Part shown: piece after piece, positions 1 through 7,050 of the stretch | How the letters are laid out: the number at the start of each line of letters is the position of its first letter | How positions within the stretch are numbered: position 1 is the first letter of the stretch | Assembly: GCA_046759145.1 (NCBI GenBank) | Contig: JBHIBR010000093.1 | Span: 1-7,146 of the forward strand | DNA length: 7,146 nucleotides | From: JBHIBR01 sp046759145 [NCBI: Nitrospinota bacterium] | GTDB lineage: Bacteria > UBA8248 | Direction: 5' to 3' | Made by a program: the position numbers and the translations under genes | The notes under the pieces: model-generated | Database searches by the model: none | Told to the model about the DNA's origin: nothing | The model's input: only the letters and a program-made list of their open reading frames with translations

Positions 1-530
1 GCCCCGTGGACGCCGTTCTCCCCGGCGGGGCCGATGGCCGCCACGCTGGCCTCAGCGTTGGCGAGGTCGGAGCGGATGGCTTCTTCCGTCTCGTGGGTGT
101 CGAGACCCCAGAAGGGCGAGGCGTCCCGAAGCTCCCCCTCCCCGTCGTGCACCCAGAGGTAGAGGGGTTCGGCCGAGTGGCCCTCGAGGATGAGGCCGTC
201 GTAGCCCGCCCGCTTGAGCTGCGGGCCCCACGAGCCGTGGCTGTGGGAGGTGAGGACGGTGTAGCCGACGTCGTAGTTGAGGCCCACTGCCGTGAAGTCA
301 GCCGCCGTGGGCACCATGGTCCCCGTCAGGGGCCCCGTCATGAAGATGAGGGGGTTATCGGGGTCCTTCGCCCCCGCCCCATCCGGCAGCTCCCGGCAGA
401 GGAGCCACACGCCCAGGCCCGTCCCGCCCACGTACTGGCGGAGGATTTCCTCCGGCGGGAGCGGCTCCTCGGCGATGCGGCGGGCCGAGAGGTTCACCCG
501 AAGGAGCTTTCCCACATAACCGAGGGGCAT
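1..530 (-). CDS. Aldehyde:ferredoxin oxidoreductase family protein, N-terminal part (3' end outside window)
   Basis: Members of this family are cytoplasmic tungsten-bis-pterin, [4Fe-4S] enzymes that oxidise aldehydes to carboxylic acids and pass the electrons to ferredoxin. The visible 176 residues are the N-terminal tungstopterin-binding domain. They show GKLLRVNLS (7-15), YVGGTGLG (33-40), a TGPLTG motif (65-70), LKRAGYDGLILEG (105-117), LRDAS (134-138) and IGPAGENGV (166-174), all family hallmarks in the correct order. The cluster-binding cysteines and C-terminal domains lie beyond position 1. The ATG at 530 is preceded by GGAG with 6 bases of spacing, and homology begins right at the N-terminus. 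Against P. furiosus AOR as I recall it, the usual GGR is AAD here (Asp78), and the usual NSGG is replaced by SHSHGSWGP (95-103), so this is a divergent subfamily. It is divergent from a 2-oxo acid decarboxylase whose aldehyde product could be its substrate (inference). Family assignment is firm; the substrate is unknown. Confidence 0.9.
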   Translation of the reverse strand, partial: MPLGYVGKLLRVNLSARRIAEEPLPPEEILRQYVGGTGLGVWLLCRELPDGAGAKDPDNPLIFMTGPLTGTMVPTAADFTAVGLNYDVGYTVLTSHSHGSWGPQLKRAGYDGLILEGHSAEPLYLWVHDGEGELRDASPFWGLDTHETEEAIRSDLANAEASVAAIGPAGENGVHG

Positions 531-568
531 GGCTTTCTCCGTCCTTTGATCAGCCTCGCGCCGCCGGC

Positions 569-585
569 TCGGCCTGCGGGGCCGA
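569..585 (-). other. Hairpin in oxidoreductase 5' leader
   Basis: The perfect 6-base inverted repeat TCGGCC / GGCCGA with a 5-base loop lies 39-55 bases upstream of the oxidoreductase start codon. It would form a G+C-rich stem in the leader RNA. I could not match the leader to the Moco/Tuco riboswitch consensus. Such short stems are common by chance at this G+C content, so any function is speculative. Confidence 0.25.
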
Positions 586-643
586 CGCACCGGCCCGCTG
601 AACCGCCTCCCCTTGCCCCGCGGTCTCAGGATATATCTCGGGT

Positions 644-657
644 CATGCTAGGGCATG
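644..657. repeat. Inverted repeat CATGC-TAGG-GCATG, possible operator
   Basis: Two 5-base perfect arms are separated by 4 bases. The repeat covers the candidate -10 element of the oxidoreductase promoter (645-650 on the minus strand), a typical place for a repressor operator. It is short, and no second copy was noticed elsewhere in the window, so it remains a candidate. Confidence 0.3.
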
Positions 658-673
658 CTGCAAAGGCGCGCAA
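645..673 (-). promoter_or_regulatory. Candidate sigma-70-type promoter for the oxidoreductase gene
   Basis: On the minus strand TTGCGC (668-673, 3 of 6 matches to TTGACA) is followed after exactly 17 bases by TAGCAT (645-650, 4 of 6 matches to TATAAT). It lies in the A+T-richer part of the spacer. Transcription would begin near 638, leaving a leader of about 108 bases that includes the 569-585 hairpin. This is inferred from consensus matching only. Confidence 0.3.
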
Positions 674-768
674 GGATGGAAGGCAAAAAGCAGAAACCCC
701 CATTCCCTCGCGAGAAAGGGGGCGGGATGGCTCAGCCTCACCCTTGCCCAACCCTGGCGCGCCCCCCC

Positions 769-797
769 GGGACAGCCGGCGCGCCTTGACTTACACT
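769..797 (+). promoter_or_regulatory. Candidate sigma-70-type promoter for the decarboxylase gene
   Basis: GGGACA (769-774, 4 of 6 matches) and TACACT (792-797, 4 of 6 matches) are spaced by 17 bases. The start point would be near 804, giving a leader of about 37 bases before the ATG at 841. The better -35-like word TTGACT at 786-791 has no acceptable -10 downstream, since the matching position is CGGCCG. The call is modest. Confidence 0.3.
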
Positions 798-840
798 AGG
801 AGAGCGTCCGGCCGGCACGTCCACCGCACGGAGGGAACGC

Positions 841-2460
841 ATGAGCACCCTCGGTCACTTCCTCATCCAAAAGCTGCGCGAGTACGGGGTGCGGGAAGTG
901 TTCGGCATCCCTGGCGATTTCGCCCTGCCCCTCTTCCGCTGCCTGGAGGAGGAGGGGAGCCTCAGGCTCGTGACCTTCTCGCACGAGCCGGCGGTGGGCT
1001 TCGCGGCAGACGGCGCGGCGCGCTGCTCGGGGAGGCTCGGGGTGGCGTGCGTCACCTACGGGGCGGGGGCGCTCAACATGGTGAACCCCGTGGCGGGCGC
1101 CTACGCGGAGAAGTCGCCTGTAGTGGTCATCTCGGGAGGGCCCGGCCGGGACGAGAAGGCCCGGGGAGTGGCCCTCCACCACCAGGTCAAGTCCTTCGCC
1201 ACCCAGCTCCGGGTCTACCGGGAGGTGACCCAGGGGGCTTTCGTGCTGGACGACCCCGCCACTGCGGCCCAGAGCATCGAGGAGGCTCTGGCCGCCGCCC
1301 GACACTACAGCCGCCCCGTCTACCTCGAGGTCCCCCGGGACCTGGTAGACGCTCCCCTCCCCGCCCCTTCTTCCCCTCCTGCCGCCCTCCCCCGGGAGGA
1401 CCCCGGGGCGGTGGAGGAGGCCGCCGACGAGGTGGGGGAGCGGGTCCGCAAAAGCCGCCGACCCGTCCTGATGGTGGGGGTGGAGCTACAGCGGTTCGGG
1501 CTGGGCTCGGCCGCGACCGAACTGGCCGAAGCCTATGGGCTCCCGACGGTGAGCTCCTTCATGGCCCGGGGCACCTTCCCCTCACACCACCCTCTGTTTG
1601 CGGGCGTCTACCTGAGCGAGGCGGGCCGGCGCGCGGTGGCGCAGCTCGTGGAGGGGAGCGACTGCCTTCTTCTCCTCGGGGTGATCCTGAGCGACGTGAA
1701 CATGGGGGTGCGGCTGCGGCGCCTCCATCCCGACCGCGTCATCCACGCCTTCGACCGCCAGGTGAGGGCGCGGCACCATCGCTTCGACCAGGTGAGCCTC
1801 GAGGGGTTGCTGCGCGCCTTGCTCTCGCGGGTCCGGGGAAGCAGGCCGAGGAGGCGCGCCCTCCCGCCCAAGCGATCCTTCCGCTTGGCGCGACGGCTGG
1901 GAGGGAGCCCCATCTCCGTCCTCGACCTCATCGGCGTCCTCAACCGATTCCTCCGGGAGCGGGAGCGCATGGTGCTGGTCTCCGACACGGGGGACCCTCT
2001 GTTCGCAAGCGTGGACCTGGACACCGACCACCTCGTGGCCTCCGCCTGCTACGCCACCATGGGCTTCGCGGTGCCCGCGGCCCTGGGGATCCAGGTGGCG
2101 GTGGGCTGGCGCCCCCTCGTGCTTGTGGGAGACGGCGCCTTCCAGATGACAGGCCCGGAGCTGAGCCAGTGCGCCCGCTACGGCCTGAACCCCATTGTAG
2201 TGGTCTTCCGAAACGATAGCTGGGAGATGCTCCAGGTCTTCATCCCGGGGCGCTTCAATGAGATCCCCGCCTGGCCCTTCGCCCGGCTTGCGGGGCACTG
2301 GGGGGGAGCCGGTTTTCGGGCCGAGACCCCTCGCGCCCTGTGGGAATCGCTCCTCAAGGCCCACGCCGAAAGACGGTTTTCCCTCATCGAGGTTCCCCTC
2401 AAGCGCGGTGACACCTCGCCCGTGCTTCGGCGCTTCACCACCGCGCTCCGGAAGGGATAG
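841..2460 (+). CDS. ipdC: Thiamine-diphosphate-dependent 2-oxo acid decarboxylase, phenylpyruvate/indolepyruvate decarboxylase type
   Basis: This cytoplasmic enzyme is expected to decarboxylate aromatic or other bulky 2-oxo acids (phenylpyruvate, indolepyruvate) to the aldehyde. The 539 residues have the three-domain ThDP fold. The N-terminal Pyr domain has GIPGDFALP (Asp26), SHEPAVGFAADGAAR (Glu49, the ThDP-activating glutamate), YGAGALNMVN and LHHQ (His113-His114). The central domain includes ILSDVN (Asp285). The C-terminal PP domain has GDGAFQMTG (430-438) and FRNDSWEML. Asp431 and Asn458 are the expected Mg ligands; the first Asn of the usual Asn-Asn pair is Arg457. The wording follows Azospirillum phenylpyruvate decarboxylase almost end to end. 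Like that enzyme as I recall it, it has Leu464 where pyruvate decarboxylase has a catalytic Glu. GGAGGG 5 bases before the ATG supports this start. It is divergent from the aldehyde oxidoreductase. Acetolactate synthase or pyruvate decarboxylase are less likely. Class is firm; exact substrate is inferred. Confidence 0.88.
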   Translation: MSTLGHFLIQKLREYGVREVFGIPGDFALPLFRCLEEEGSLRLVTFSHEPAVGFAADGAARCSGRLGVACVTYGAGALNMVNPVAGAYAEKSPVVVISGGPGRDEKARGVALHHQVKSFATQLRVYREVTQGAFVLDDPATAAQSIEEALAAARHYSRPVYLEVPRDLVDAPLPAPSSPPAALPREDPGAVEEAADEVGERVRKSRRPVLMVGVELQRFGLGSAATELAEAYGLPTVSSFMARGTFPSHHPLFAGVYLSEAGRRAVAQLVEGSDCLLLLGVILSDVNMGVRLRRLHPDRVIHAFDRQVRARHHRFDQVSLEGLLRALLSRVRGSRPRRRALPPKRSFRLARRLGGSPISVLDLIGVLNRFLRERERMVLVSDTGDPLFASVDLDTDHLVASACYATMGFAVPAALGIQVAVGWRPLVLVGDGAFQMTGPELSQCARYGLNPIVVVFRNDSWEMLQVFIPGRFNEIPAWPFARLAGHWGGAGFRAETPRALWESLLKAHAERRFSLIEVPLKRGDTSPVLRRFTTALRKG

Positions 2461-2522: not shown

Positions 2523-2702
2523 ATGCGGAAGCAATTGGACGATGCGATCGAGCTCTACCAGGGCATGCCCCCCGAGGGCCGCAAGCACTGGCGGGAGAGG
2601 GCCGTCCCCTCCATCAAGTTCGAGAGCGAGGAAGAGCGGCGCCTTTTCCTCGAGGACCTGGACCGCATCGACGCAGGTGAAGAGCCCCAAAACCTGAGCT
2701 AG
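2523..2702 (+). CDS. Small charged hypothetical protein, 59 residues
   Basis: I do not recognise this protein. It starts MRKQLDDAIELYQGMPPEGR, continues with KHWRERAVPS and an acidic-basic helix-like stretch (FESEEERRLFLEDLDRID, 33-50), and ends EPQNLS. It has no signal peptide, membrane segment or cysteine, and looks cytosolic and mostly helical. AAGGAGG at 2508-2514 lies 8 bases before the ATG, one of the best ribosome-binding sites in the window. Amino acid composition is balanced, unlike the Pro/Arg/Gly-rich shadow frames. It sits 62 bases after the decarboxylase on the same strand and may be co-transcribed with it. It then faces the dehydrogenase gene tail-to-tail. Too short for family assignment by eye; it could be a small regulatory or partner protein, but nothing in the sequence shows that. 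Confidence 0.65.
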   Translation: MRKQLDDAIELYQGMPPEGRKHWRERAVPSIKFESEEERRLFLEDLDRIDAGEEPQNLS

Positions 2703-2766
2703 TGGACGCGCGCGGAGGTGGACCGGGAAGCGAAGGGCCTGGCCCCAGGGAGACCCCTCCGCCCGG

Positions 2767-2786
2767 GGCGCCCGCCTAGCGGCGCC
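2767..2786. terminator. Weak hairpin at the convergent gene ends
   Basis: GGCGCC (2767-2772) and GGCGCC (2781-2786) form a stem that can extend by GC/GC with one bulged base, leaving a CTA loop. That loop is the dehydrogenase stop codon. On the plus strand it is followed only by TCTTCGG and on the minus strand by no T-run, so it is not a classical intrinsic terminator. Its position between converging genes is the main support. The rest of the 73-base gap is unremarkable. Confidence 0.2.
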
Positions 2787-3762
2787 TCTTCGGCCACACC
2801 TCCGGATTCACGAGGTTGGGCGGCCTGCGGCCAGCCAGCGCCGCGAGGCAGTTGCGCACCGCCACCATCCCCATGGCGGTGCGGGTTTCGAGGGTGCCGC
2901 TGGCCGCATGGGGCTGGAGCACCACGTTCTTGAGGGAGGCGAGGCCGGGGGCAGTGCGGGGCTCTCTCTCGAAAACGTCCAGCCCGGCGCCCGCGATCTG
3001 GCCCGAGCGGAGCGCCCGAACCAAAGCCCTCTCGTCCACCACCGGCCCCCGGGAGGCGTTGATCAGGATGGCTGTGGGCTTCATGAGGGAGAACTCCCGG
3101 GCGCCGATGAGGTGGCGGGTCTCGGGAGTAAGGACGGTGTGGAGGGTGACGAAATCGGACTGCCGCAGGAGCTGAGGCAGGCTCACCCGCTTTGCTCCCA
3201 AGCGCCGCTCCTCGGCCGCCGGGAGGGCGACAATGTCAGTGTAGAGCACCTTCATGCCGAAGCCCTGGGCCCTGCGGGCCATGGCGCGCCCGATGCGACC
3301 CATGCCCACGATCCCCAGGGTCTTGCCGTGCACGTCCCGGCCCAGCATGAAGGTGGGCTTCCAGGTCTCCCAGCGACCCGAGCGGACGAAGGCGTCTCCC
3401 TCGACCATCCGGCGGGCCACCGCCATCATGAGGGTCCAGGCCATGTCGGCGGTCGTCTCGGTCAGGACCTCGGGCGTGTTGGTGACGGGCACCCCGCGCT
3501 CGGTGGCCGCCCCCAAGTCCACGTTGTCGAAGCCCACGGCATAGTTGGCCACGACCTTCAGGCCGGGGGCGTGGTCCAGGAGCTCCCCGTCCACGCGTTC
3601 GGTGAGCAGGGAGATGAGGCCCTGAGCCTTCCGCGCCTCTCGCAGGAGAAGAGGCCGCGGAACGGGGAGGTCTCCCGGGTAGACCTTGAGGTCGACTCGG
3701 GCCGCCAGGTAGTCCATCGCCGCCTGCGGGACCTTGCGGGTGAGGAAGACGCGGGGTTTCAT
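2776..3762 (-). CDS. gyaR: D-2-hydroxyacid dehydrogenase, glyoxylate/hydroxypyruvate reductase (GyaR) type
   Basis: The enzyme reversibly reduces small 2-oxo acids (glyoxylate, hydroxypyruvate) to D-2-hydroxyacids with NAD(P)H in the cytosol. The 328 residues are full length for the family. They start with MKPRVFLTRKVP and include VANYAVGFDNVDL (71-83), the Rossmann motif GMGRIG (153-158), NASRGPVVDE (Arg238), LDVFEREP (Glu267), QPHAASGT (His285) and the terminal NLVNPEV found in archaeal GyaR. Arg238, Glu267 and His285 are the family's catalytic set. Asp176 at the end of the second Rossmann strand (LYTDI) predicts NADH rather than NADPH preference. The start is set by a full AAGGAGGT (3767-3774), only 4 bases before the ATG. 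It lies 73 bases downstream of the M28 peptidase gene and is probably in its operon. A metabolic link to the peptidase is not obvious; exact substrate is uncertain within the family. Confidence 0.88.
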   Translation of the reverse strand: MKPRVFLTRKVPQAAMDYLAARVDLKVYPGDLPVPRPLLLREARKAQGLISLLTERVDGELLDHAPGLKVVANYAVGFDNVDLGAATERGVPVTNTPEVLTETTADMAWTLMMAVARRMVEGDAFVRSGRWETWKPTFMLGRDVHGKTLGIVGMGRIGRAMARRAQGFGMKVLYTDIVALPAAEERRLGAKRVSLPQLLRQSDFVTLHTVLTPETRHLIGAREFSLMKPTAILINASRGPVVDERALVRALRSGQIAGAGLDVFEREPRTAPGLASLKNVVLQPHAASGTLETRTAMGMVAVRNCLAALAGRRPPNLVNPEVWPKRRR

Positions 3763-3777
3763 CTCGACCTCCTTACG

Positions 3778-3815
3778 CCGGGGGCGGATCTTCAGCGCGG
3801 GAAGATTCCCCCCGG
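3778..3815 (-). promoter_or_regulatory. Strong intercistronic hairpin upstream of the dehydrogenase
   Basis: A 7-base outer stem (CCGGGGG 3778-3784 with CCCCCGG 3809-3815) and a 6-base inner stem (ATCTTC 3788-3793 with GAAGAT 3801-3806) enclose a 7-base loop, with a small internal loop between the stems. It occupies half of the 73-base gap between the peptidase stop and the dehydrogenase start, and ends 3 bases before the AAGGAGGT ribosome-binding site. No T-run follows on either strand, so it is unlikely to be a rho-independent terminator. RNA processing, message stabilisation or translational control are possible roles (inference). Confidence 0.45.
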
Positions 3816-3835: not shown

Positions 3836-5743
3836 TCAACGTCGCCGCCCCAGCCGGGTCTTGGCCTGCAGCTTCTCTCCTCCTCTCCGGAAGCGGACCT
3901 CCACCTCGTCCCCCGCCCGGTGACTTCGCAGGACGTACACCAGGTCGTAGAGGTTCCCGATCGCAGCGCCCCCCAGGCTCACGATGAGGTCGCCCCCTCG
4001 CAAGCCCGCCCGCTCCGCCGGACTTCCCGGCCGCACGCCCGTGATGAGGACACCCTTGAGGGAGGGCTCCTGGGAGAAATCGGGGATGATCCCGAAGTAG
4101 GCTCCGTACCCCCCGCGCCAGCCCACCCGCGGGCGGCGGGGTGGGCCCTCTCGCGCCACCTGGAAGTGGAGGGGGATCTCGCCGTCTCCGACCTCTCGGA
4201 TGACGCGATGGGCGATGCGGGCCACCTTCTCAAGACTCGCCGCCTGGACCTTGTCAGCGGTGTCCGTGGGCCGGTGGTAGTCGGGATGAGGCCCCGTGAA
4301 GAAGAAGAGGACGGGGCGCCTCTGGGCGTAGAACGGCGTGTGGTCGGAAGGTCCGTAACCGTCCCCCCCGAACCGCAGCTCAACCCCGGAACCCCGGGCC
4401 GCCCCTGGCAGCAAGGAGCGGAACTCCCGGGCGGTGTCGGCACCGAAGACGTGCAGCTTCTTTTGCCGCATGCGTCCCACCATGTCGAAGTTCAACATGG
4501 CAGCCAAGCGCGAGATGGGCATGGGGGGATGCTTCGCGAAGCGGGTGGAGCCCAGGAGGCCCATCTCCTCCCCCGCGAAGGCGACGAAGTAGAGGGTGCG
4601 CCTCGTTCCTCCCGCAGCGGCGAGAGCGCGCGCGAGACCCATCACCACCGCTGCCCCCGAGGCGTTGTCATCTGCCCCCGGGTGGAGCTGGCCGTGGCGG
4701 GAGGGTGCGAGGCTCCCCTCCCCGCCGAAGCCCAGGTGGTCATAGTGGGCCCCGATGACCAGGAACTCCCCCCTCAGCTTCGGGTCCCGCCCCGCGAGCG
4801 CCCCCACCACGTTGAAGGCCGCTCCTCGGTGCTGAATGAGGTTGGCGCGGAGGGAAACCCTGACGCCAGGAAGGAGAAAGCTCCGGGGTGCGAGGCCATC
4901 GTCGATGGACCTCTGGAGCTCTTCCAGCGTCTTCCCGGAGGGCCGGAGAAGGGCCTCCACCACGCGTCGCCGGACGTTCAGGGCGGGGATGCTCTGGCGC
5001 GCTCCGAAGGCGAGCCCTCGGATGGCGAAGAGCTCCTCGGGTTCCCCCTGGGAGGACAGGGGCCCTTCCACCAGGAGGATCCCCTTGGCGCCCCGACGCT
5101 CGGCGTTGATCACCTTGTAGATGACCCGCGTGTAGCGGAAGGCCTCGGGGCGGCGGAAGGGGCTCTTTCTGTCGTACTCCCGGGGCTCGCGGGTGAGGGC
5201 GAGCACCACCTTCCCCCGCACGTCGAGCCCTTTGTAGTCGTCGTAGCCGAGCTCCGGGGCGGTGATGCCATAGCCGACAAAGACCACCTCCCCCTCGGCC
5301 TCCCCTTCGGCCGAAAAACCGAAGGGCCGAAAATCCTCCTCCAGAAGGAACCGGCAGCGGGATGAACGCCCTCCTCCCCTCAGGAGCGTCGCCTCCAGCC
5401 GGTTCCGGGGGCCCGCTTCCACGCGGGTGATCACCTGGAATTCCTGCAGGTAGCTCCCCCTATCCCCCGCGGGTTCGAGCCCCGCTCGGCGGAATTGGCG
5501 GGCGATGTATTCGGCTGCCTGCCGGATACCGCGCGTGCCGGTGGCCCGCCCCTCCATACTGGGGGAAGAGAGAATGCGCACATGTTCGAGGAGGTTCTGG
5601 CCCTTGAGCTCGTCCTGTACTTGCGCTCGCTCGAGGGCGGTGGAGGCCGGCGCCCCGCACCCGAGGACGGCAAGGGAGAGAAGGATGCAGGCCGAGAGGG
5701 ATAGAAAAACCCTACGGCCTGAGAGGCTCGACCGAGAGGCCAT
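3836..5743 (-). CDS. M28-family zinc metallopeptidase lipoprotein with C-terminal PDZ domain
   Basis: This is a predicted membrane-anchored, extracytoplasmic aminopeptidase-like hydrolase of 635 residues. A basic N-terminus and hydrophobic stretch (12-28) end in the lipobox VLGC with acceptor Cys29. A PA-like insert spans roughly 140-290. The M28 di-zinc core is complete: GAHYDHLG (His333), GADDNASG (Asp358), AGEEMGLLGS (Glu392 general base, Glu393 ligand), NFDMVGR (Asp420) and PDYHRPTD (His490). A PDZ domain follows at about 540-628 (SPAERAGLRGGDLIVSLGG). The start ATG has AGGAGG 4 bases upstream. The gene diverges from the PD40 protein gene and is followed by the dehydrogenase. The family ranges from leucine and glutamate aminopeptidases to glutaminyl cyclases, so the peptide specificity cannot be read. 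The PDZ may bind substrate termini or a partner. All metal ligands are present, so it should be active. Confidence 0.9.
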   Translation of the reverse strand: MASRSSLSGRRVFLSLSACILLSLAVLGCGAPASTALERAQVQDELKGQNLLEHVRILSSPSMEGRATGTRGIRQAAEYIARQFRRAGLEPAGDRGSYLQEFQVITRVEAGPRNRLEATLLRGGGRSSRCRFLLEEDFRPFGFSAEGEAEGEVVFVGYGITAPELGYDDYKGLDVRGKVVLALTREPREYDRKSPFRRPEAFRYTRVIYKVINAERRGAKGILLVEGPLSSQGEPEELFAIRGLAFGARQSIPALNVRRRVVEALLRPSGKTLEELQRSIDDGLAPRSFLLPGVRVSLRANLIQHRGAAFNVVGALAGRDPKLRGEFLVIGAHYDHLGFGGEGSLAPSRHGQLHPGADDNASGAAVVMGLARALAAAGGTRRTLYFVAFAGEEMGLLGSTRFAKHPPMPISRLAAMLNFDMVGRMRQKKLHVFGADTAREFRSLLPGAARGSGVELRFGGDGYGPSDHTPFYAQRRPVLFFFTGPHPDYHRPTDTADKVQAASLEKVARIAHRVIREVGDGEIPLHFQVAREGPPRRPRVGWRGGYGAYFGIIPDFSQEPSLKGVLITGVRPGSPAERAGLRGGDLIVSLGGAAIGNLYDLVYVLRSHRAGDEVEVRFRRGGEKLQAKTRLGRRR

Positions 5744-5813
5744 GCGCCCTCCTCAAGAAGAGAATCCCCCTGCCTCCGGCCCTGAATCGGGTAGGCTTGC
5801 TCCACAACCAGCA

Positions 5814-5819
5814 TATAAT
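5814..5819 (+). promoter_or_regulatory. Consensus -10 box TATAAT for the PD40 gene
   Basis: A perfect TATAAT stands out in a G+C-rich background in the 131-base divergent spacer 5744-5874. It would start transcription near 5826, giving a leader of about 49 bases before the ATG at 5875. No good -35 element is present (GTAGGC at 17-base spacing), nor an extended TGn -10, so the promoter may need an activator. The same A+T patch could also serve the divergent peptidase gene, but I found no convincing minus-strand promoter. Confidence 0.4.
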
Positions 5820-5862
5820 GATTGGAAAGGCGCGGGCCAGCTCGGCCAGCCCACTCCCCCCG

Positions 5863-5868
5863 GGAGGG
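5863..5868 (+). promoter_or_regulatory. Ribosome-binding site fixing the PD40 start at 5875
   Basis: GGAGGG lies 6 bases before the ATG at 5875. The same frame is open further upstream to a TTG at 5797, but that start has no ribosome-binding site, would precede the TATAAT box, and would bury the signal peptide. The 5875 start is therefore preferred. Confidence 0.7.
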
Positions 5869-5874
5869 AGCGTG

Positions 5875-7050
5875 ATGCCGCTCACGAAAGAAAGACTCCG
5901 GCTCGCCCTCTTGTCTGCCCTGGCCGGGGTGACTCTCTGGACGGGGGCGGTTTGGTCAGAAGCTTCTTCGAGGAGCGCCCCCCGGCAGAGCTGGATGGCC
6001 GGGGGCCACGCGGCCCCGCGCGGGGAGCCAGTTGTTTCGAGTCCCCCTCAGCACCGGGGGCTCCAACGAAGTGGGCGCATTCGCTCCGGCCCGGTGGCCG
6101 GGGGCCACCACCTGCGCAACATCCGCCAGCTCACCTTCGGGGGGAGCAACGCCGAGGCCTACTTCTCTTGGGACGGGAAGAAGGTCATCTTCCAGGCGAC
6201 CCGCGACGGCTTCGCCTGCGACCAGATCTTCACCATGAAGGCCGACGGGACCGACCTGCGGCTCCTGAGCACGGGGAAAGGCCGCACCACCTGCTCTTTC
6301 TTCATGCCCGGAGACCGGCAGATCATCTACTCCTCCACCCACCTGGGCGACGCTGCCTGCCCCCCTCGCCCGGACCGCTCCCAGGGCTACGTGTGGGCCC
6401 TGTATGACTACGACATCTTCATCGCGAACGCCGACGGCTCAAACCTAAGGCGCCTCACCGAAAACCCGGGTTACGACGCCGAGCTCGAGGGGGTGGCCCC
6501 CGACGGGACGATTGTGTTCACCTCCCTCCGGGAGGGGAACCTGGACCTCTACACCATGGACCGCAATGGCCGAAACCTGCGCCGGCTCACCCACGAGCGG
6601 GGCTACAACGGCGGCGCCTTCTTCTCCTGGGACGGGAAGGAGATTGTCTACCGCGCCTACCATCCCAAGACCCCCGAAGAGGTGGAGGATTTCGAGAGGC
6701 TCCTTGCGAAGGGGCTCATCCGCCCCCGCCGGGCGGAGCTCTTCGTGATGGACCGGGACGGGAGGAACAAGCGGAAGTTGACGCATAACGGAGCGGCCAA
6801 CTGGGCCCCCTCCTTCCACCCCAACGGCCGCCAGGTCATCTTCTCCTCGAACCTCCACGCGCCGGGCACGCGCAGTTTCGACCTCTACCTCACCCGCATC
6901 GATGGGACCGGGCTCGAGCGGCTCACCTTCGGCGGCTTCAACAGCTTTCCCGCCTTCTCCCGCGACGGGAAGAGACTTCTTTTCACCTCCAGCCGGGGGG
7001 CCAAGGGGCCGAGGGAGTTCAACATCTTCCTCGCGGAGTGGGTGCCGTGA
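5875..7050 (+). CDS. Exported TolB-like six-bladed PD40 beta-propeller protein
   Basis: The 391-residue protein begins with a Sec-type signal peptide (basic MPLTKERLR, hydrophobic 9-27, likely cleavage near SEA-SS at 30). A low-complexity linker runs to about 80. Six PD40/WD40-like blades follow. Each has an S/P-x-D/N-G-K/R strand such as FSWDGKKVIF (97-106), SPxxDG-like VAPDGTIVF (207-215), FSWDGKEIVY (250-259), FHPNGRQVIF (314-323) or FSRDGKRLLF (361-370), then a D-(I/L)-(F/Y)-x-(A/M)-x-x-D/N-G-x-x-L/K-RxLT strand. LTFGGSN (86-92) and LTFGGFN (350-356) bracket the propeller, as if closing it. Such proteins act in the periplasm or at the cell surface in protein or ligand binding; this one is not TolB itself, as it lacks the TolB N-terminal domain and a Tol-Pal context. 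The stop overlaps the next gene's start by one base, so translation is coupled. Ligand unknown. Confidence 0.85.
   Translation: MPLTKERLRLALLSALAGVTLWTGAVWSEASSRSAPRQSWMAGGHAAPRGEPVVSSPPQHRGLQRSGRIRSGPVAGGHHLRNIRQLTFGGSNAEAYFSWDGKKVIFQATRDGFACDQIFTMKADGTDLRLLSTGKGRTTCSFFMPGDRQIIYSSTHLGDAACPPRPDRSQGYVWALYDYDIFIANADGSNLRRLTENPGYDAELEGVAPDGTIVFTSLREGNLDLYTMDRNGRNLRRLTHERGYNGGAFFSWDGKEIVYRAYHPKTPEEVEDFERLLAKGLIRPRRAELFVMDRDGRNKRKLTHNGAANWAPSFHPNGRQVIFSSNLHAPGTRSFDLYLTRIDGTGLERLTFGGFNSFPAFSRDGKRLLFTSSRGAKGPREFNIFLAEWVP

What the first reader, a model, noticed from the sequence alone, without database searches (positions are those of the whole stretch)
1..2460. Divergent arylpyruvate decarboxylase and tungsten-type aldehyde oxidoreductase: a compact 2-oxo acid to acid module
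The decarboxylase matches phenylpyruvate/indolepyruvate decarboxylases, which release an aldehyde. The head-to-head neighbour is an aldehyde:ferredoxin oxidoreductase family member. Together they would convert an amino-acid-derived 2-oxo acid to the carboxylic acid and recover reduced ferredoxin, like the route described for anaerobic phenylalanine degradation in Aromatoleum. The shared spacer suggests common control. If the acid is indole-3-acetate, the module could also be an auxin route with an unusual oxidising step.
Basis: partly seen in the sequence, partly recalled or inferred. Interest (0 to 1): 0.6.

Follow-up and report, generated by a model that had tools for sequence, protein, structure and literature searches.

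The report
Decarboxylase gene beside odd tungsten enzyme
A real aromatic keto-acid decarboxylase gene sits back to back with the start of a tungsten-enzyme gene, but the pairing was not found to be kept in the relatives examined and the tungsten enzyme falls in a little-known branch whose longer members lack two usual aldehyde-oxidising residues, so a two-step pathway is not shown.

Summary
The two genes exist: a complete Azospirillum-type indolepyruvate/phenylpyruvate decarboxylase (841-2460, +) and, divergent across a 310-bp spacer, the first 176 codons of an aldehyde oxidoreductase (AOR/WOR) family gene (530..3, -), cut by the window edge. The decarboxylase passes the TIGR03394 cut-off and matches AbPPDC at 19 of 21 checked positions. 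A conserved module is not supported: 1 of 53 related decarboxylase loci has an AOR near by, of another type; 11 of 16 proteobacterial genomes with such a decarboxylase carry a canonical AOR, each on another contig; in one class 30 of 145 genomes have both genes and none of 28 with a listed AOR place has them within 100 kb. The window's own family could not be sampled. The AOR groups with six rare homologues (95/95); the longer members of this clade and its sister clade lack PfAOR Thr243 and His448, which all other rows examined keep. An aldehyde-to-acid step is therefore doubtful but not excluded. One lead: in another genome an AOR of this clade also lies head-to-head with a thiamine-diphosphate enzyme of another family. 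Ordinary decarboxylase, uncharacterised AOR branch, functional link unproven.

The parts
3..530 (-). 5' part (176 codons, cut by the window edge) of an AOR/WOR-family large-subunit gene; N-terminal tungstopterin-binding domain
   Evidence: PF02730 E 3.3e-50; PDB AORs E down to 1.6e-40; tree and residue table
531..840 (.). 310-bp spacer between the two divergent start codons; no consensus promoter or terminator found
841..2460 (+). Azospirillum-type indolepyruvate/phenylpyruvate decarboxylase, ThDP-dependent, 539 aa
   Evidence: TIGR03394 582.5 bits over a cut-off of 554.5; 2nxw E 8.3e-136; residue comparison; tree

Best explanation
The right-hand gene encodes an ordinary ThDP-dependent arylpyruvate decarboxylase (Azospirillum PPDC/IpdC type) that turns phenylpyruvate or indolepyruvate (substrate inferred, not shown) into CO2 and the arylacetaldehyde. 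The left-hand gene starts a tungstopterin oxidoreductase of a rare, uncharacterised AOR/WOR subfamily that probably does not carry the standard aldehyde-oxidising second shell (inferred from relatives). The two are head-to-head neighbours in this lineage only, as far as could be seen; they are not a conserved pathway module, and the aldehyde is more likely handled by another dehydrogenase or reductase elsewhere in the genome (inferred).
For: Decarboxylase: over the TIGR03394 cut-off; Asp25, Glu48, HH112-113, Asp282 and W459, E460, M461, L462, F465, F532 as in AbPPDC and in nearly all of 16 proteobacterial relatives, while 34 other relatives all differ at 461 and 465; in the tree it branches with the proteobacterial decarboxylases, 100/97. 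Non-conservation: 1 of 53 loci has an AOR within the stretch (L048, a 35% paralogue); 11 of 16 proteobacterial genomes have a canonical AOR, in none on the decarboxylase contig; 30 of 145 genomes of the class of G040 have both, 0 of the 28 with a listed AOR place within 100 kb; 0 of 8 genomes of the order holding the closest AORs has a decarboxylase match at E 1e-50. AOR type: clade of 7 (95/95) inside a group of 35 (89/90). In that group 0 of 33 rows that reach position 243 have Thr and 0 of 30 that reach 448 have His; outside it 47 of 47 have Thr243 and 46 of 46 have His448. Thr243, Glu313, Tyr427 and His448 are described as second-shell residues conserved in most characterised AORs (PMC12096430 passages; PMC13328260).
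Against: The window AOR's own catalytic residues lie outside the window, so its loss of Thr243/His448 is inferred from relatives only 49-56% identical over the N-terminal domain. The decarboxylase and a canonical AOR co-occur in 11 of 16 proteobacterial genomes (against 2 of 34 others with any AOR; confounded by kinship), so a genome-level link of the two activities exists. GAPOR, an aldehyde oxidiser, also lacks the usual Tyr/His region. In G669 an AOR of the same clade also faces a ThDP enzyme. The group of 35 is not strongly supported and the window branch is long.
Confidence: 0.6

Rival explanations
1. The first reader's module: the decarboxylase makes an arylacetaldehyde and the neighbouring tungsten enzyme oxidises it to the acid, passing electrons to ferredoxin or another carrier; the divergent spacer co-regulates both.
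For: Chemically direct; the same pair of activities is described for Aromatoleum phenylalanine degradation and canonical AORs occur in 11 of 16 proteobacterial genomes with a related decarboxylase; head-to-head arrangement with a 310-bp spacer.
Against: Pairing not found conserved; the longer members of this AOR's clade lack Thr243 and His448; no promoter-like site found.
Confidence: 0.2
2. The AOR clade is a partner of ThDP enzymes or flavoprotein electron carriers in a chemistry other than plain aldehyde oxidation (for example on a 2-oxo acid, hydroxy acid or CoA-linked substrate), and the window pair is one case of it.
For: In G669 an AOR of the same clade lies head-to-head with an acetolactate-synthase-like ThDP enzyme, about 1.2 kb apart; in G338 an AOR of the clade is followed at once by ETF beta-like and alpha genes; unusual residues.
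Against: The ThDP enzyme in G669 is of another family and is cut by the contig end; 1 of the 6 other clade members has one in the stretch read, and two sit with TRAP transporter genes (L211, L212). Several stretches are short. A chance of roughly 5% for one such neighbour among six is my own rough estimate, not a computed control.
Confidence: 0.15
3. The adjacency is an assembly artefact, for example of a metagenomic contig (the origin of the window is not known).
For: Single observation; no genome held.
Against: G+C content is even across the window (66-74% in 500-base steps) with no break at the spacer; both genes have open frames and ribosome-binding-like stretches.
Confidence: 0.05

Closest known systems
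Azospirillum brasilense phenylpyruvate decarboxylase (PPDC/IpdC, PDB 2nxw; TIGR03394)
   Same: Full-length match, 47% identity, above the family cut-off; 19 of 21 checked positions the same
   Different: M380 and G403 are Thr; a deep branch beside the proteobacterial clade; substrate untested
Aromatoleum aromaticum AOR (AorABC, PDB 8c0z) in anaerobic phenylalanine degradation
   Same: Same enzyme family; the pathway idea (arylacetaldehyde to acid)
   Different: Its large subunit has Arg76 and Asn93, it has small and FAD subunits in one operon and uses NAD+; the window AOR has Asp and His there and a divergent decarboxylase, not aorA, before it
Pyrococcus furiosus AOR (PDB 1aor)
   Same: N-terminal tungstopterin domain, E 3.7e-34
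   Different: R76 to D, N93 to H, G95 to H
   Same: 49-56% identity over the N-terminal domain; same clade
   Different: Different neighbours: ETF, TRAP transporter, or an ALS-like ThDP enzyme; G338 has a decarboxylase relative but on another contig
Class II benzoyl-CoA reductase BamB and E. coli YdhV
   Same: AOR-family proteins described as lacking the usual second-shell residues (PMC12096430 passages)
   Different: BamB is the weakest of nine PDB matches to the window fragment; their extra Cys ligand was not checked here

Membership tests
Indolepyruvate/phenylpyruvate decarboxylase (TIGR03394) | Full-length score over the curated cut-off | tested here: met
   582.5 against 554.5 bits, residues 4-534
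Indolepyruvate/phenylpyruvate decarboxylase (TIGR03394) | Catalytic Asp/Glu and HH motif of PDC/IPDC/PPDC | tested here: met
   D25, E48, H112, H113; HH described as specific to PDC, IPDC and PPDC in PMC3534367 (passages)
Indolepyruvate/phenylpyruvate decarboxylase (TIGR03394) | AbPPDC pocket positions (choice of positions recalled, not from a call) | tested here: inconclusive
   T71, D282, F385, W459, M461, L462, F465, F532 kept; M380 is Thr, whereas 13 of 16 proteobacterial relatives keep Met
Indolepyruvate/phenylpyruvate decarboxylase (TIGR03394) | Activity on phenylpyruvate or indolepyruvate | not testable with these tools
   needs an assay
AOR/WOR family (large subunit) | AFOR_N domain | tested here: met
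   PF02730 E 3.3e-50, 171 bits against 29.8
AOR/WOR family (large subunit) | [4Fe-4S] cysteines and C-terminal domains | not testable with these tools
   beyond the window edge
Aldehyde-oxidising AOR | Thr243, Glu313, Tyr427, His448 (PfAOR numbers) | tested here: inconclusive
   outside the window; of the same clade's members that reach the columns 5 of 5 lack Thr243, 4 of 4 lack Tyr427 and His448, 5 of 5 keep Glu313
Aldehyde-oxidising AOR | Arg76 and Asn93 as in PfAOR | tested here: not met
   Asp and His in the window; Arg76 in 5 of 5 aligned solved AORs, Asn93 in 4 of 5, WOR83 reading His. Weaker mark: of 47 rows outside the group 42 have Arg76 and only 28 Asn93
Aromatoleum-type three-subunit AOR | small-subunit gene aorA directly before the large-subunit gene | tested here: not met
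   the gene before it is the divergent decarboxylase; what lies downstream is not visible
Conserved decarboxylase-AOR module | pairing kept in relatives | tested here: not met
   1 of 53 loci, with an AOR of another type; 0 of 28 genomes with both within 100 kb; the window's own family was not sampled

The most novel reading that the evidence does not exclude
The AOR is a member of an uncharacterised tungstopterin subfamily that has given up the aldehyde-oxidising second shell and works, with a ThDP enzyme encoded head-to-head (an arylpyruvate decarboxylase here, an acetolactate-synthase-like enzyme in another genome), on a 2-oxo-acid-derived substrate by a reaction other than plain aldehyde oxidation.
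Probability: 0.12. Interest if true: 0.65.

Novelty: new member of a known kind. Interest (0 to 1): 0.28.

Why it matters
It corrects an attractive pathway guess: naming both neighbours after their families would suggest an aldehyde-to-acid module, but neither the gene context examined nor the residues of related AORs back it. It also points to a two-clade branch of AOR homologues (34 sequences here besides the window) without Thr243 and His448 wherever these columns are reached. A 2026 paper says that only five of 92 WOR clades have a member with a defined physiological role (PMC13328260 abstract), so a testable, possibly unassigned branch is of some use; I did not place it among those 92 clades.

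Tried and rejected
Viral contigs searched with the decarboxylase and with the M28 peptidase gave no relative. In plasmid records the best listed decarboxylase relative has 40.5% identity (20 of 875 records listed). The window's taxon could not be fixed: its M28 peptidase is 52% like G040, its AOR is closest to G669 and G738 and its decarboxylase to Proteobacteria. TIGR03394 was sparse: 5 of 299 genomes of the phylum of G001 at E 1e-100 and 7 of 118 of the phylum of G041 at E 1e-80, none over the cut-off. Two more searches for the AOR clade found no new members at strict limits: 8 genomes of the class of G738 at E 1e-110 (its other matches are 38-39% identical) and 148 of the class of G228 at E 1e-125. 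My simple ORF picker misplaced genes in high-GC stretches (for example in L180), so neighbours there rest on Pfam matches of named ORFs. No structure was predicted. A paper search for the phrases indolepyruvate decarboxylase and aldehyde ferredoxin oxidoreductase together found no paper; one on AOR, decarboxylase, gene neighborhood, thiamine pyrophosphate and electron transfer flavoprotein (four of five) listed one paper, not opened. Both cover only the held open-access library.
Full report
What is there. The 7146-base window (66-74% G+C in 500-base steps) holds, left to right, the start of an AOR-family gene (530..3, minus), a decarboxylase (841-2460, plus), a D-2-hydroxyacid dehydrogenase (3762..2776, minus), an M28 peptidase with a PDZ domain (5743..3836, minus) and a PD40-repeat protein (5797-7050, plus). 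The two genes of the finding are divergent, with 310 bases between the start codons. The AOR gene leaves the window after 176 codons.

The decarboxylase is a good member of a known family. It scores 582.5 bits against TIGR03394 (cut-off 554.5). Its best solved relative is the Azospirillum brasilense phenylpyruvate decarboxylase, 47% identical over 527 positions. I compared 21 positions taken as catalytic, cofactor or pocket positions of that enzyme (the choice is recalled, not from a call): 19 are the same and two differ, M380 to Thr and G403 to Thr; 15 of 16 proteobacterial relatives also have Thr at 403, but 13 of 16 have Met at 380. Thirty-four relatives from other groups all differ from AbPPDC at 461 and 465, and 32 of 34 at 462 (this set of 34 is not quite the set of 34). 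In a tree of 60 sequences the window branches next to the 16 proteobacterial ones (100/97), on a long branch.

The pairing was not found conserved where it could be looked for. The one scan of genome contigs gave 53 loci, some of them only about 3 kb long. The window's AOR fragment finds an AOR in 1 of 53 (L048, Azoarcus taiwanensis, 35% identity, about 3 kb from the decarboxylase). Whole-genome searches of 50 of the 53 genomes (L047, L049 and L053 left out) found an AFOR_N domain in 13. By group of the decarboxylase tree these are 11 of 16 proteobacterial genomes and 2 of 34 others; kinship confounds this contrast. The best AOR of each of the 11 has the canonical residues and lies on a contig of another length than that of the decarboxylase; the decarboxylase contigs L002 (3.3 kb) and L008 (16 kb) are short, so an edge could hide a neighbour there. 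In the class of G040, 84 of 145 genomes have a decarboxylase relative (E 1e-60), 79 an AOR (E 1e-10) and 30 both (counted). For 28 of these at least one AOR place is listed (for 24 all of them; the listing is capped): only G232, G237 and G309 have a listed AOR on the decarboxylase contig, over 100 kb away. For G275 and G303 no AOR place is listed. The order that holds the AORs closest to the window's has 8 genomes, none with a decarboxylase match at E 1e-50 (the tool warns that an empty answer without a positive control shows little). None of these groups is shown to be the window's own.

The AOR is unusual. Its closest homologues are in G669 (56 and 54% identity), G738 (54%), G228 (51%) and G338 (49%, two copies). 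In a tree of the N-terminal domain with 82 rows the window falls with these six in a clade of 7 (95/95), sister to 28 others (group of 35: 89/90, not strongly supported; the window branch is long). At PfAOR positions 76, 93 and 95 the window reads Asp, His, His where PfAOR reads Arg, Asn, Gly. None of the 34 other rows of the group has Arg76 or Asn93; of the 47 rows outside it 42 have Arg76 and 28 Asn93, so Asn93 is a weak mark. Outside the columns used for the tree the split is clean: 0 of 33 rows of the group that reach position 243 have Thr and 0 of 30 that reach 448 have His (Pro or Trp instead), against 47 of 47 and 46 of 46 in the rest. Position 427 is not diagnostic: His stands there in all 30 rows of the group that reach it, but also in 16 rows outside. 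In the clade of 7, Glu313 is kept in 5 of 5; of the [4Fe-4S] cysteines Cys288 is Ser in 2 of 5, the others are kept where reached. A review describes Thr243, Glu313, Tyr427 and His448 as second-shell residues conserved in most characterised AORs and absent in BamB and YdhV, of which BamB does other chemistry and YdhV is unassigned; it also says that GAPOR lacks the Tyr/His region though it oxidises an aldehyde (PMC12096430, passages). So the pattern argues against, but does not exclude, aldehyde oxidation. The window's own residues at these places cannot be read.

Neighbours of the AOR clade. Six other members were read with their surroundings. G338 (L182): ETF-domain and ETF alpha genes directly downstream. 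G228 (L180): enoyl-CoA hydratase, acetyl-CoA hydrolase/transferase and flavin oxidoreductase genes within about 6 kb of the AOR start, and ETF matches about 6-7 kb away. G669 (L211) and G738 (L212): TRAP transporter genes. G669 (L210): a ThDP enzyme of the acetolactate-synthase kind, head-to-head at about 1.2 kb, cut by the contig end. L181 (G338): the AOR is at a contig end. Among 53 stretches around the better AOR matches (not all matches, several cut short by contig ends), ThDP-enzyme matches occurred in 3 (L210, L249, L253); L210's own protein was one of the queries, but the window decarboxylase also found it (E 7e-18). This is a lead, not a pattern.

Aromatoleum as a model. There aldehydes of phenylalanine and other pathways are oxidised mainly by NAD(P)-linked dehydrogenases; the AOR is three-subunit, uses viologens or NAD+ and is assumed to prevent build-up of the aldehyde (PMC6365974: abstract, introduction and passages; PMC9765128: passages). 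The classification paper lists its role as aldehyde oxidation for growth (PMC13328260, part of the results section). Co-occurrence in 11 of 16 proteobacterial genomes agrees with such a link, but for canonical AORs, not for the window's type.

Conclusion. The decarboxylase is ordinary. The AOR is a member of a subfamily for which I found no characterised member among the solved AORs matched. A joint pathway and shared regulation are possible but not supported by conservation, by the residues of related AORs or by signals in the spacer.

Noticed in passing
L020:11278-13323 and the matching gene in 19 other loci: In 20 of 53 loci, mostly Binatota-like, the decarboxylase relative is followed at once by a gene of one cluster; the one member scanned is an AMP-binding acyl-CoA synthetase. 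The non-proteobacterial decarboxylases have a changed pocket, so they may do something else.
   Followed up: partly
AOR rows, 28-row clade (e.g. L148, L150, L160): A second AOR clade with Lys76, Asp313, His427, Pro448, sometimes with two copies per genome (e.g. G040, G305, G289); in L184 and L187 a gene with a Cys-rich ferredoxin-like start precedes it (judged from the sequence, no Pfam run).
   Followed up: partly
L048:11400-13718: Azoarcus taiwanensis carries another AOR paralogue (35% to the window fragment) about 3 kb from its decarboxylase; related copies in G001, G003 and G005 lie on other contigs than the decarboxylase.
   Followed up: partly
window 2776-3762: D-2-hydroxyacid dehydrogenase convergent with the decarboxylase; nearest NCBIfam model is glyoxylate reductase, below its cut-off (402.3 against 455 bits); it could act on 2-oxo acids, untested.
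   Followed up: no
window 2524-2697: Small open frame after the decarboxylase, 57 codons scanned, with no Pfam or NCBIfam match.
   Followed up: no
L210:1-1422 and 2660-3811: ThDP enzyme and an AOR of the window's clade head-to-head in genome G669, both cut by contig ends.
   Followed up: partly
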